This document shows, piece after piece, positions 46,924 to 53,787 of a stretch of 64,000 nucleotides of DNA. The stretch spans positions 1 through 64,000 of the forward strand of contig NZ_JAFIWB010000016.1 in NCBI RefSeq assembly GCF_017163705.1. Direction: 5' to 3'. How positions within the stretch are numbered: the first letter of the stretch is position 1; the number at the start of each line of letters is the position of its first letter. The translations under genes and the position numbers were made by a program. The DNA is from Xanthomonas bonasiae. GTDB lineage: Bacteria; Pseudomonadota; Gammaproteobacteria; Xanthomonadales; Xanthomonadaceae. Below the pieces are notes generated by a model. That model worked only from the letters and a program-made list of their open reading frames with translations, was not told the DNA's origin and did no database searches.

Positions 46924-49224
46924 ATGCCAATGTATGTGCTCACTTTAGTGAGCTTAGGTATCTCCGCGCTATTTGTGCTGCTGACCGCATCGTGGTTGGT
47001 TCGCTTTCGTCTAGGCAATGAAGCGGTGGTAGGGGTGTCGGTGCAGGAACAAGCGATTCACCTATCGCTTGGCATCATCTTGGTTCTGGTGTTAACCGTG
47101 AACCTAAGCTTGTGGATCCCTGGAAGACTTATTCATCTTGCGCTGATCGCCACCGCGGCGATGGCGGTACCGAGGTTGTGGAACTTTCGTTCACAGGGCG
47201 GCTGGCGCGTACTTTATTGGATTGCCTGCCTAATTGTTCTGGTCGTCTTTGCGGGCTGGATGACTGCGCTGCGTGTGGATGCAGAGCATTATTGGCTGGT
47301 GGAAACATCGAACCACGATACGCTTTTCTATTATGAAGGTGCACGTTGGGCTGCTCAGAATGCCGTGCACGCAGACCCCTCAGTAGTAGCGGATAAGTTG
47401 GGTCTGGGCAGCTGCCGCTTAGGCGCGGTCTATGTCGGTAATGATTGCCCTGTCTATCGAGCAGGAACCTTCTCGATGCTTGCTCAGGCGTTGGCATACG
47501 GAGGTGGTACCTCCGCTAACGATATGCTCGTCTCTGCATCGTTAGGTGTCCTTTTGCTGGGTGCTGGATTTCTGCCGTTGATCATTCAGAACAGCTTTGC
47601 CGAGAAAGGGCGGTCAATTCTATGGACTCCGGTGTGCTTTGTCATTTTAGCGATCGTTTATTTCTCGCCGACGTTGATGGCTGCAGCTATCAATAGCAAT
47701 GTTGCAACGACGTTTGGCGCCGTTGCCGCGGGAATGGTGCTAGCTCTTTCGTTGCACGAGGATCAAGTCTGGTGGCGTCGTCCTTTGATGACAGGGTTTG
47801 GTGCTGCGTTTGCCTCGCACGTATACGGAGAGGCCGCCGGGCCTGCTGTTATCGTAGCTGCGATTGGCGTCATTCACTTTGCCTTGAGTGAGAGATCGCT
47901 AAAGGGCTTTGTTCGCGATGGTGCGGTATGTGCGTCAGCTTTCTTTATTGGCGCTAATGTCGTGATTGCGCAGTTGCTCAGGTCTGCGCGCGATGTCAAT
48001 GCGATCGCCGTGGGCGGGCAATGGGAGGGAATGTATCTGCACGCCAGTCCATGGACATGGCTGGCTTCCCCATTCGCTGGCATGGTCGTGAATGGGTCGC
48101 CCTATGTCACTAAAGGCATGCTGGTGAATGGATTGGCGCTCGCAGCGCTGGTGATAACGGCAAGCTTGTTCGCGAAGCGAACTCGTGGGGCTCTTTTGGC
48201 GGTTCTGGTTGTGGGGGTGCTGCTCATTTCTTTTGTAGAAATGCGCCAGTATGCGTATGGAGAACACAAGGTCGTACAAATGATCGGCACTTTGGCGTGC
48301 GTGCTCGCTGCGGGTGTCGCGATTATGTCAGTGCGCCGAGCGGTTACTGTTAATCGTACACCTTGGACTAACGCTAGCGGTCTGGTTGGTGGTCTAATTC
48401 TACTTCTGATGCTTTTCGCAATTTGGCTTCAGCTCCGCCCATCGTTGCAGGTAATTTCTAGTTGGAAGACGCTGCATGGTTTGTCTGCCGATTTCCAGCG
48501 CGATTTGCAAGTGCGTGGTGCGGATGCTGATTGGGTCATTGATGACACAGGTACTGGTAGTGTGGAGCGCTTCCAGAAGTCTCACTACATTGCGTATCTT
48601 ATTCATGCCGGAAAGGGGCATGCATATCTGCCCAAGCTTGATCAGGAGGGAATGCGGGGGGGGTATGCGCGTAAGGTCTTGGGCAACACGCTCGCTAGAC
48701 TGCAACGTGCTCGCTGGTTGGTACAGCTGAAGTCATTTGATGGTGTTGTTTCTCCTTTTGTATATCCGCCCCAGGCCACGATGCAGTCCACGGAGTATTC
48801 AGTCGTCGACCTCGAAAAGACTTCGCCTGCGCTCGCTGTCTCGGGGTGGGGATGGTTGTCTTGTAATGCTCAGGGCTGTCCCGTGGCAAGCGGTTTCGAG
48901 ATCGAAGCGCTGTCTTGGGCAAGGCAGGGTGAGGTTTGCGCGCTACGTGTTTCCGGTCACCCGCTCCCTACATGGCCCAAGGCAACCTTTAAGCTCAGTG
49001 CTGAGGGAGCGCAAGTGATCTTTACGCGTGAAATGCAATGGAAACCTGAGGGGGTACTGTTGCCCCTTTCGCGGGGTTGGCAGCGCTTCCGATTCGATGA
49101 CGCTGCCAATACACCAGGTGCCCTTTGGCAGGTGACAAGGGCGGCGGTAGAGTGCCGCGTTTCTTCAGGGCCTACTGTCGCTGGCGTCGATCATTCTTCG
49201 GCAGTCGTCGGTAGAGAGCCATGA
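46924..49224 (+). CDS. Large polytopic membrane protein, putative GT-C glycosyltransferase
   Basis: A 766-residue protein with about 10-12 hydrophobic spans in the first 480 residues and a soluble C-terminal domain of about 270 residues. After the third or fourth span, an extracytoplasmic loop carries a polar stretch around H131-D132 (NHDTLFYYEGARW), a place where GT-C enzymes usually hold catalytic acids. This fits a periplasmic glycosyltransferase using a lipid-phosphate sugar. Its stop overlaps the SMR flippase start. Codon use is much more AT-rich than in the flanking core genes. No closer family was recognised. Confidence 0.6.
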   Translation: MPMYVLTLVSLGISALFVLLTASWLVRFRLGNEAVVGVSVQEQAIHLSLGIILVLVLTVNLSLWIPGRLIHLALIATAAMAVPRLWNFRSQGGWRVLYWIACLIVLVVFAGWMTALRVDAEHYWLVETSNHDTLFYYEGARWAAQNAVHADPSVVADKLGLGSCRLGAVYVGNDCPVYRAGTFSMLAQALAYGGGTSANDMLVSASLGVLLLGAGFLPLIIQNSFAEKGRSILWTPVCFVILAIVYFSPTLMAAAINSNVATTFGAVAAGMVLALSLHEDQVWWRRPLMTGFGAAFASHVYGEAAGPAVIVAAIGVIHFALSERSLKGFVRDGAVCASAFFIGANVVIAQLLRSARDVNAIAVGGQWEGMYLHASPWTWLASPFAGMVVNGSPYVTKGMLVNGLALAALVITASLFAKRTRGALLAVLVVGVLLISFVEMRQYAYGEHKVVQMIGTLACVLAAGVAIMSVRRAVTVNRTPWTNASGLVGGLILLLMLFAIWLQLRPSLQVISSWKTLHGLSADFQRDLQVRGADADWVIDDTGTGSVERFQKSHYIAYLIHAGKGHAYLPKLDQEGMRGGYARKVLGNTLARLQRARWLVQLKSFDGVVSPFVYPPQATMQSTEYSVVDLEKTSPALAVSGWGWLSCNAQGCPVASGFEIEALSWARQGEVCALRVSGHPLPTWPKATFKLSAEGAQVIFTREMQWKPEGVLLPLSRGWQRFRFDDAANTPGALWQVTRAAVECRVSSGPTVAGVDHSSAVVGREP

Positions 49225-52356: not shown

Positions 52357-53787
52357 TCACATCGCTGCCAAGACAGCGGCCGCCCCCAGCAACACTGTGA
52401 TCAGGCTGCCCCGATCCTTGACTGCAAAAACGACGGGGTCATCATGCATCAGCCCTCGGTGCGCGAGCATCCAGGTTCGGCTGATCCAGTAGAGAAGAAT
52501 CGGGCACAGAAGCCACAGGAAGAATGGGTGGCTATATAACGCCTGACTGTCGGGCGTGTTGATGTACAAGCAGAGGACCAACACGGCCATCAATCCGGAT
52601 GCCGTTCCCAGGGATTGAACGAGCGAGAGATCCTCCACGTGATAGCCACGGCCGCTGGGGATGAACTTCCCCGCTCCTAGGGTCATCTGGAGTTCGGTAA
52701 AGCGCTTGAGCATGGCCAGACTCAGGAACAAGAAGAGCGACAGCGCCAGCAGCCAGAATGAGGGCGTCACACCGATGGCGGCTGCGCCGCCGATGATGCG
52801 GATCGTATACAGCGCAGCGAGCGTCACCACATCTATGATGACGATCTGTTTCAGTTTCAGCGAATAGGCAAGCGTCAGCAAGTAATACGTTGCGAGTACG
52901 GCCAAGAACGCTGGTGATGCCAGCCACGCGGTCGCCAGTCCGGCAATCGTTAGCAGTGGTGCTGCAACAAGTCCTGCGCGCAAATCCAGGGTTCCTGCTG
53001 CAAAGGGGCGACGTCGCTTGCGTGGATGTCCACGATCCGATTCAAGGTCTAACAAATCATTCAGCAGGTAAACGCCGGAGGCGCAAAGGCCGAATGCGAG
53101 GAAGGCCGATGCGGAAGTCAAGAGGCCATTCAGCTGGGAAAAGCTGTGGCTGGCCAGCAGTGGAACGAAGACAAGCAAATTCTTCAGCCACTGGTGCACG
53201 CGGAGGGCCTTCAGCCAAGTCAACGGGCTGCTGCCGCTGCGTGGCCAATATGCCTCGACGGAACAAACCTTAGCGGCAGCTTTCGAGACGGTCGGGCCTG
53301 CATTCACCACCCACGCGCTATGGGCGTGTTTCCAGATGCGGAGATCGACCATATCGTTGGCGACGTAATCAAAGCCCTTTTCGCCAAAACGCTCAAGCAG
53401 TAGCCGCGCCTTGCGGCTTCCCGCGAGATTTATTCGTCCGTCGCTACAATGTACTTCATCAAAAAGATTGAGGTGTTCAGCAATCGGGTATACCAGCTGC
53501 GCATCCGACGCCGTGCACAGCACGCGCGGACGGTCCGTGGTTTCGCGTAGCAGTTGCAAAACACGCGGATCGTAGGGAAGCGCCGCAGCGCTCCCCGCTC
53601 CGAATGCAGCCAGCTTGCGCTTCAGATGTGCTTTGCCACGAAACAACCATAGCGGGATGCACACCAGCAACCAAGGGCGGGAGGACAGCATGCTCAGGAA
53701 CGACTCGTAAAGCAGGTCGCTGAGCAGGAGCGTGCCGTCCAGGTCAACACAGAGCGCCCGAGGATGGGCCGGCGTTTCAGCGTTCAA
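52357..53787 (-). CDS. HAD-UbiA fusion, putative polyprenyl-phosphate phosphoribosyltransferase/phosphatase
   Basis: A 476-residue fusion. Residues 1-180 are a HAD phosphatase (VDLDGTLL with D15/D17; CTASD; VANDMVD). Residues 190-476 are a UbiA-type prenyltransferase with NDLLDLESD (243-251) and YSLKLKQIVIIDV (308-320). The segment RVHQWLKNLLVFVPLLASHS and the DRGHPRKRRRPFAAG loop match the DPPR-synthase branch (Rv3806c-like) that joins PRPP to polyprenyl phosphate. The HAD part could then remove the 5-phosphate, giving polyprenyl-phospho-ribose. A TTG start was taken because AAGGAAA lies 6 bases upstream; longer frames would run into etfA. Function is inferred from family. Confidence 0.75.
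   Translation of the reverse strand: MNAETPAHPRALCVDLDGTLLLSDLLYESFLSMLSSRPWLLVCIPLWLFRGKAHLKRKLAAFGAGSAAALPYDPRVLQLLRETTDRPRVLCTASDAQLVYPIAEHLNLFDEVHCSDGRINLAGSRKARLLLERFGEKGFDYVANDMVDLRIWKHAHSAWVVNAGPTVSKAAAKVCSVEAYWPRSGSSPLTWLKALRVHQWLKNLLVFVPLLASHSFSQLNGLLTSASAFLAFGLCASGVYLLNDLLDLESDRGHPRKRRRPFAAGTLDLRAGLVAAPLLTIAGLATAWLASPAFLAVLATYYLLTLAYSLKLKQIVIIDVVTLAALYTIRIIGGAAAIGVTPSFWLLALSLFLFLSLAMLKRFTELQMTLGAGKFIPSGRGYHVEDLSLVQSLGTASGLMAVLVLCLYINTPDSQALYSHPFFLWLLCPILLYWISRTWMLAHRGLMHDDPVVFAVKDRGSLITVLLGAAAVLAAM

What the first reader, a model, noticed from the sequence alone, without database searches (positions are those of the whole stretch)
46924..53787. Possible lipid-linked pentofuranose decoration module (GT-C + SMR flippase + HAD-UbiA)
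A DPPR-synthase-like UbiA fused to a HAD phosphatase would make polyprenyl-phospho-ribose from PRPP. The SMR protein could flip it, and the 766-residue GT-C-like protein, translationally coupled to the SMR gene, could transfer the sugar in the periplasm. No DprE1/DprE2-like epimerase genes are present, so the sugar would stay ribofuranose unless those are elsewhere. The combination parallels mycobacterial arabinose donors but is placed inside an O-antigen locus. The genes are seen; the pathway is inferred.
Basis: inference. Interest (0 to 1): 0.8.

Follow-up and report, generated by a model that had tools for sequence, protein, structure and literature searches.

The report
Lipid-carried ribose module decorating bacterial LPS
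A small gene set inside a bacterial surface-sugar locus looks built to load ribose onto a membrane lipid, flip it outward and attach it to the O-antigen; this kind of pathway was published in 2024, but this version carries an extra sugar-transferase gene of unknown role in every copy seen.

Summary
The genes are real and correctly placed. The 52357-53886(-) product is a HAD-UbiA fusion whose only PDB sequence matches at E<=0.01 are mycobacterial DPPR synthase. An SMR/ArnF-like protein overlaps (ATGA) a 766-aa, about 12-TM orphan protein. The proposed route (PRPP to lipid-P-ribofuranose, flip, periplasmic transfer) is the three-component pentofuranose system shown in Citrobacter youngae (Kelly et al. 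2024, PMC11127046), which mentions Xanthomonas candidates. So the kind is known. No pentose has been shown chemically, GT-C activity is inferred, the GT4 role is open.

The parts
46924..49224 (+). presumed GT-C glycosyltransferase, 766 aa, 12 hydropathy segments, large loop about 115-200 with E127/N130/H131/D132 invariant in six sequences, soluble-looking C-terminal part from about 505
   Evidence: no Pfam or NCBIfam match at E<=1, no PDB match at E<=10
49221..49571 (+). SMR/EamA small flippase, 116 aa, 4 hydropathy segments, ATGA overlap with the preceding gene
   Evidence: PF00892 6.3e-7; ArnF model 2.5e-7 (31 bits, below its cut-off of 99)
49561..50700 (+). GT4 (GT-B) glycosyltransferase; ATG at 49576 is the likelier start; recurring fourth gene
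   Evidence: PF13692 4.2e-28; co-segregation; alignment A5; PDB matches are generic GT4 enzymes, the near full-length ones being PimA (8.3e-10)
50701..51531 (.). stretch without a gene between GT4 and MT; 84% identical in G018, no codon periodicity
51532..52230 (+). SAM methyltransferase, optional module member
   Evidence: PF13489 9.4e-23; 54% relative next after GT4 in G1035
52357..53886 (-). HAD phosphatase-UbiA fusion, presumed polyprenyl-phosphate phosphoribosyltransferase plus 5'-phosphatase; D48xD50, N276 D277 D280 D284, R395 E398
   Evidence: NF006088 635 bits against cut-off 351; PDB 8j8j 7.6e-29; residues; HAD Pfam match 26.0 bits is just under its 27-bit cut-off
44790..46782 (+). 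gmd and rmd-like reductase (context: GDP-rhamnose for the backbone)
   Evidence: TIGR01472 9.5e-144; 2pk3 1.7e-32, best 4lw8 'putative epimerase' 1.4e-87
37796..44730 (+). wzm, wzt (from 38584), WbdD-like methyltransferase/kinase, two-domain GT4 polymerase candidate (context)

Best explanation
It is a probably horizontally acquired pentofuranose decoration module, without DprE1, for an exported rhamnose-type O-antigen. [quoted passage not shown] The SMR protein flips lipid-P-ribofuranose. The 766-aa membrane protein, presumed GT-C, transfers the ribofuranose to the polymerised O-chain in the periplasm before ligation. A dedicated GT4 is a constant fourth part: either it prepares the acceptor, or it extends the lipid-linked sugar before flipping. 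A methyltransferase is an optional fifth part. Shown by sequence: gene identities, key residues of HAD-UbiA, co-segregation, no close DprE1 in the genome. Inferred: the sugar, flipping, GT-C activity, GT4 and MT roles.
For: HAD-UbiA is DPPRS-like; the residues examined in ORF15 are conserved, with the same N-to-R distance of 119 (residues from PMC11127046; there R366A and E369A kept activity, so those two are weak markers). The same kinds of genes (Wzm, Wzt, WbdD-like terminator, multi-domain GT polymerase, Gmd, Rmd, GT-C, small flippase, HAD-UbiA) are experimentally a ribofuranose pathway in C. youngae O1. The module recurs in six loci: window, G018, G916, G1056, G1035 and Marivivens plasmid NZ_CP018573. 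In Marivivens the UbiA protein has no HAD part but is followed by a PAP2-family protein (PF02681 2e-33), as in mycobacteria (that Rv3807c is PAP2-type is recalled; the paper says only that it is unrelated to HAD). Best DprE1 relative in this genome 46.1 bits. Module GC is 54-58% against 61-70% around.
Against: The presumed GT-C matches no GT family or solved structure and its single-sequence model failed (pLDDT 39.5), so its activity rests on topology and context. In the window HAD-UbiA is on the opposite strand, beyond an 831-bp stretch without a gene and the MT. 12 of 14 same-genus genomes with a HAD-UbiA have no such GT-C, and none of 20 HAD-UbiA loci fetched from other genomes of the class showed a relative of it at E<=1e-3. 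The six loci were found with the GT-C or the GT4 as bait, so they are not a random sample. No sugar analysis exists here. Homology to GT136 could not be tested. A DprE2 or other SDR epimerase elsewhere in the genome was not searched for.
Confidence: 0.78

Rival explanations
1. Same donor route, but the added sugar is an epimer (D-Xylf or D-Araf) made by an unlinked epimerase, or by the SDR at 45853-46782 acting as an ORF13-like epimerase.
For: ORF12 of C. youngae accepts both Ribf and Xylf donors, and C. youngae ORF13 is an SDR; the best PDB match of the 45853 product is a 'putative epimerase' 4lw8.
Against: Best DprE1 relative in the genome only 46.1 bits; the 45853 SDR directly follows gmd and also matches GDP-6-deoxy-D-lyxo-4-hexulose reductase 2pk3; its relatives follow gmd in G1056 and stand near it in Marivivens, as expected of rmd.
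Confidence: 0.12
2. HAD-UbiA belongs to another pathway, and the SMR/GT-C pair uses a hexose donor made elsewhere (Gtr-like).
For: HAD-UbiA is on the other strand, 1.66 kb from the GT4 gene; a 60-62% relative exists without this GT-C in 12 of 20 same-genus genomes.
Against: In G1035 HAD-UbiA, GT-C, SMR, GT4, MT follow each other on one strand; in Marivivens GT-C, SMR, GT4, DPPRS, PAP2 do; no GT2 match among the five module products.
Confidence: 0.08
3. The 766-aa protein is not a glycosyltransferase but another membrane enzyme such as a ligase or polymerase.
For: No GT profile matches it or two relatives (Pfam only); profile against PDB gives only a chance hit; no usable structure model.
Against: Invariant Glu/Asn/His/Asp in the first large loop, conserved YGxxK, soluble-looking C-terminal part, and pairing with a lipid-ribose synthase and flippase in 6 of 6 loci accepted.
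Confidence: 0.07
4. Quinone or heme prenyltransferase: UbiA is unrelated to sugars.
For: UbiA superfamily Pfam match; weak matches to several other prenyltransferase models.
Against: Decaprenyl-phosphate phosphoribosyltransferase model 1e-48 against heme O synthase 1.7e-8 and proteobacterial UbiA 0.0045; PDB only DPPRS.
Confidence: 0.01

Closest known systems
Three-component pentofuranose glycosylation system of Citrobacter youngae O1/O2 (ORF12 GT136, ORF14 flippase, ORF15 HAD-UbiA), PMC11127046
   Same: HAD-UbiA fusion with the same examined residues and spacing; small four-helix flippase with ArnE/ArnF resemblance; large multi-TM protein with a C-terminal extra part; ABC-transporter O-antigen locus with gmd/rmd and WbdD-like terminator; no DprE1/E2
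   Different: Extra recurring GT4 and optional methyltransferase; the presumed GT-C has its large loop after the third hydropathy segment, not after the first helix as described for ORF12; relation to GT136 untested; in Marivivens a PAP2 protein stands in place of HAD
Mycobacterial decaprenyl-P-arabinose pathway (Rv3806c, Rv3807c, DprE1/E2, Rv3789, Emb/Aft)
   Same: UbiA half is DPPRS-like; SMR-type transporter; large membrane transferase presumed
   Different: No close DprE1; acceptor is an O-antigen; HAD phosphatase in the window
Arabinose-type set of 12 same-genus genomes (HAD-UbiA + DprE1 + DprE2)
   Same: 60-62% identical HAD-UbiA; etfA or etfB called in the fetched stretch in 7 of 12
   Different: DprE1 and DprE2 present in 12 of 12 stretches; no window-type GT-C, SMR or MT at E<=1e-5; only weak partial GT4 matches in 2 of 12
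GtrABC O-antigen glucosylation
   Same: Conserved flippase and donor parts with a divergent membrane transferase
   Different: Donor synthase is UbiA-type using PRPP, not a GtrB-type enzyme

Membership tests
Pentofuranose decoration system of the Kelly et al. 2024 kind | Polyprenyl phosphoribose synthase (UbiA) with the residues examined in ORF15 | tested here: met
   N276 D277 D280 D284, R395 E398; N-R spacing 119 as in ORF15; NF006088 635 bits. Activity untested
Pentofuranose decoration system of the Kelly et al. 2024 kind | 5'-phosphatase (HAD/PRP domain with loop-I Asp) | tested here: met
   DLDGT at 48-52; PF12710 26.0 bits, just under 27; stretch covered by NF006088, over its cut-off
Pentofuranose decoration system of the Kelly et al. 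2024 kind | Small four-helix flippase | tested here: met
   116 aa, 4 hydropathy segments; PF00892; ArnF model 2.5e-7 below cut-off; no PDB match at E<=1. Flipping untested
Pentofuranose decoration system of the Kelly et al. 2024 kind | GT-C fold transferase | tested here: inconclusive
   12 hydropathy segments and invariant loop residues, but no family or structure match and a failed model
Pentofuranose decoration system of the Kelly et al. 2024 kind | Pentofuranose side chain on the glycan | not testable with these tools
   no sugar data
GT136 | Sequence relation to C. youngae ORF12 | not tested
   ORF12 sequence was not obtained. Against single-sequence profiles of membrane ORFs near other HAD-UbiA genes the best probability was 7.6%
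Arabinofuranose (DprE1/E2) pathway | DprE1 present | tested here: not met
   best hit in own genome 46.1 bits against 644 bits or more in 12 of 20 same-genus genomes
Quinone/heme prenyltransferase | Best match among curated UbiA models | tested here: not met

The most novel reading that the evidence does not exclude
A four-component system: the GT4 adds a second sugar to polyprenyl-P-ribofuranose in the cytoplasm, the SMR protein flips the lipid-monophosphate-linked disaccharide, and the new GT-C family transfers it en bloc to the O-antigen; where present, the MT methylates it. Pentofuranose decoration by a lipid-P-disaccharide would be a new way to build side chains.
Probability: 0.25. Interest if true: 0.7.

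Novelty: new variant of a known kind. Interest (0 to 1): 0.5.

Why it matters
It gives a sequence-distinct line of lipid-ribose decoration, seen in the window's relatives and in an alphaproteobacterium, with one gene too many for the published three-component model. That extra GT4 is a concrete handle: assaying it tells whether bacteria transfer single pentoses only or lipid-linked disaccharides. It also shows sets with and without DprE1 occurring in different members of one genus, which predicts arabinose in some species and ribose in others, and it points to an unannotated presumed GT-C family.

Tried and rejected
Tried without result: two scans of genome contigs with presumed GT-C alignments (16 and 78 pattern stretches, none confirmed) and one of viral contigs (42 stretches, none confirmed); the phage collection with HAD-UbiA gave one short match in an unannotated record. 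Presumed GT-C profile in phylum genomes: 1 of 398, the own genome; protein in class genomes: 1 of 369, the own genome. Presumed GT-C against PDB by sequence: nothing; by profile: one chance hit, E 1.9. Structure prediction from the window protein alone: pLDDT 39.5, not used for any fold search. hhalign of the presumed GT-C profile against single-sequence profiles of the membrane ORFs listed: only G018's own copy related; best other 7.6% (the 25 best were shown). This test is not sensitive. PF04030 hit in the own genome at C3:116693 (23 bits) was considered as DprE1 and dropped, because the DprE1 query reaches only 46.1 bits there.

Rejected: quinone/heme UbiA; DprE1-based arabinose in this strain. 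Row dropped before the count of loci: G905, weak presumed GT-C match (E 1.1e-5); no other module part was recognised in L097/L098 from its 21-kb contig. My quick ORF caller mis-calls genes in G+C-rich stretches; module parts were therefore also checked by tblastn.

Papers: PMC11127046 read in parts 1-6 of 8 plus a find; its supplement was not seen. Other papers were seen only as search listings with the start of abstracts. Those searches showed no other paper on this four-gene arrangement; nothing wider is claimed. WbdA/WbdB/WbdC/WbdD comparisons to the window, Rv3807c as PAP2-type, and the idea of lipid-P-linked oligosaccharides elsewhere are recalled or from the paper, not tested.
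Full report
Observation. The 766-aa and 116-aa genes overlap by ATGA at 49221-49224. The HAD-UbiA gene runs from 53886 (or a downstream start as far as 53787) to 52357 on the minus strand. The locus is an ABC-transporter O-antigen cluster: wzm, wzt with a Wzt_C domain, a methyltransferase protein with a weak kinase match and a long charged stretch (WbdD-like by comparison with the paper's description), a two-domain GT4 protein, gmd and an rmd-like reductase. Comparison with same-genus genome G018 over 11.4 kb (91% DNA identity) shows substitutions concentrated at codon position 3 in the eight gene stretches tested, and no periodicity in 50701-51531, so the genes are under selection and that stretch looks non-coding. 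G+C is 54-58% from 46 to 54 kb against 61-70% on either side, which suggests acquisition as a block.

Lipid-ribose synthase. The HAD-UbiA product scores 635 bits with NF006088 (cut-off 351). The decaprenyl-phosphate phosphoribosyltransferase models reach 1e-48, 2e-44 and 6.6e-37, each below its own cut-off; other prenyltransferase models follow far behind (best 2.7e-13; heme O synthase 1.7e-8). The only PDB sequence matches at E<=0.01 are 8j8j and 8j8k, mycobacterial DPPRS. DLDGT (48-52), N276 D277 xx D280 xxx D284 and R395 xx E398 match the residues examined in C. youngae ORF15 (D18; N247, D248, D251, D255; R366, E369) with the same N-to-R distance. In that paper R366A and E369A kept activity. 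HAD alone is just below its Pfam cut-off (26.0 against 27 bits).

Known precedent. Kelly et al. (PMC11127046; parts 1-6 of 8 read) showed in C. youngae that a HAD-UbiA fusion makes lipid-P-ribofuranose and a membrane transferase (GT136) adds it to an exported O-antigen, with a small protein as the predicted, not directly tested, flippase; that an SDR epimerase changes the sugar to xylofuranose; and that DprE1/E2 homologues accompany arabinofuranose. Xanthomonas candidates with several epimerases or GT-Cs are mentioned in one sentence.

Genus survey. The presumed GT-C is in 2 of 20 (own and G018, 91%). A HAD-UbiA is in 14 of 20: own, 95% identical in G018, 60-62% in 12 others. A strong DprE1 (644 bits or more) is in exactly those 12 of 20; the one from L047 matches PDB DprE1 at 1e-76. 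DprE1 and DprE2 relatives lie in the fetched stretch beside HAD-UbiA in 12 of 12. In L047 a GtrA protein follows; it was not recognised in the other 11 with that query. Own and G018 have DprE1 relatives of only 46.1 and 40.5 bits. The SMR gene scores over 200 bits only in own and G018; 15 others show weak EamA-like matches. So the genus holds either an arabinose-type set (12), this set without DprE1 (2), or no HAD-UbiA (6).

Wider family. Over its cut-off, the HAD-UbiA family is in 45 of 369 genomes of the class. Of 20 such loci fetched (19 genomes), none showed a relative of the presumed GT-C at E<=1e-3 and the GT4 matches were 28-30% only; three (L065, L075, L080) have a 28-30% SMR relative directly beside HAD-UbiA.

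Module beyond the genus. tblastn of the presumed GT-C against 72,556 plasmid records (E<=0.01) gave one match, in Marivivens sp. JLT3646 (24.6%, 5e-36). Its annotated neighbours are a mannose-1-phosphate guanylyltransferase, two ABC-transporter genes, an FkbM methyltransferase, a glycosyltransferase, gmd, an aldose 1-epimerase-like gene, an rmd-like gene and a glycosyltransferase; then the presumed GT-C ('hypothetical protein'), an EamA protein (41% to the window SMR), a GT4 (42%), decaprenyl-phosphate phosphoribosyltransferase (29%) and a divergent PAP2 protein. The window GT4 against all plasmids at E<=1e-30 also gave only this record. In same-family genomes the profile gave 3 of 198: own, G916 (1.2e-84) and a weak G905 that I dropped. 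G916 has HAD-UbiA 70%, GT4 78%, SMR 78% and GT-C 26% side by side.

Fourth gene. The GT4 as bait at E<=1e-40 gave 2 of 198 family genomes and 4 of 187 order genomes; its profile at E<=1e-60 gave 1 of 200 phylum genomes, the own one. The distinct bearers are own, G916, G1056 and G1035; all four carry the presumed GT-C, SMR and HAD-UbiA beside it. G018 and Marivivens, found with the GT-C as bait, carry the GT4 too. That makes 6 of 6 loci accepted. In G1035, of another family of the order, etfB, etfA, HAD-UbiA (51%), GT-C (22%), SMR (46%), GT4 (45%) and MT (54%) follow each other on one strand. MT was recognised only in the window, G018 and G1035. The GT4 is well conserved (40-97% to the window), SMR likewise (41-98%), while the presumed GT-C is not (18-91%). 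That pattern fits parts that handle a common donor against a part that meets a variable acceptor, but a conserved adaptor function would look similar. A separate GT4-domain gene upstream of wzm (within 35581-37698, probably from about 36448) has a 50.5% relative upstream of wzm in G916, so the module GT4 need not be the only adaptor. The 12 DprE1-type stretches hold no window-type GT-C, SMR or MT at E<=1e-5, and weak partial GT4 matches in 2 of 12. By PDB sequence search the GT4 resembles generic GT4 enzymes; PimA is the near full-length match (8.3e-10).

Presumed GT-C. It has no Pfam, NCBIfam or meaningful PDB match, 12 hydropathy segments, invariant E127, N130 H131 D132, Y301 x E303 and Y445 G446 xx K449 in six sequences, and a soluble-looking C-terminal part. 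The AlphaFold model from one sequence was useless. Calling it GT-C is inference.

Conclusion. Most likely a periplasmic ribofuranosylation module of the published kind, in a variant with a constant GT4, an optional MT and a new presumed GT-C family. Shown: gene content, key residues, co-segregation in the loci found, selection, no close DprE1. Inferred: sugar identity, flipping, transfer, roles of GT4 and MT.

Noticed in passing
L047-L058 (stretches of 12 same-genus genomes): HAD-UbiA with DprE1 and DprE2 in 12 of 12: a predicted arabinofuranose-type set in 12 of the 20 genomes held, with etfA or etfB called nearby in 7 of 12.
   Followed up: partly
L092:15575-16848 (NZ_CP018573.1): Marivivens has a separate UbiA-type synthase and PAP2-family protein, as in mycobacteria, inside an O-antigen cluster on a plasmid.
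   Followed up: partly
window 50701-51531: 831-bp stretch without a gene, 84% identical in G018, between GT4 and MT; in G1035 MT follows GT4 after about 280 bp.
   Followed up: partly
window 35581-37698: GT4-domain gene just upstream of wzm, possible adaptor transferase, with a 50.5% relative at the corresponding place in G916.
   Followed up: partly
L092:8650-9402: Aldose 1-epimerase-like gene (PF01263 5.9e-22) between gmd and the rmd-like gene in Marivivens; role unclear.
   Followed up: no
window 46000-54000: Low G+C block (54-58%) whose right edge coincides with the HAD-UbiA/etfA boundary.
   Followed up: no
L065, L075, L080: In three other loci of the class a 28-30% SMR relative lies directly beside HAD-UbiA without this GT-C or GT4.
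   Followed up: no
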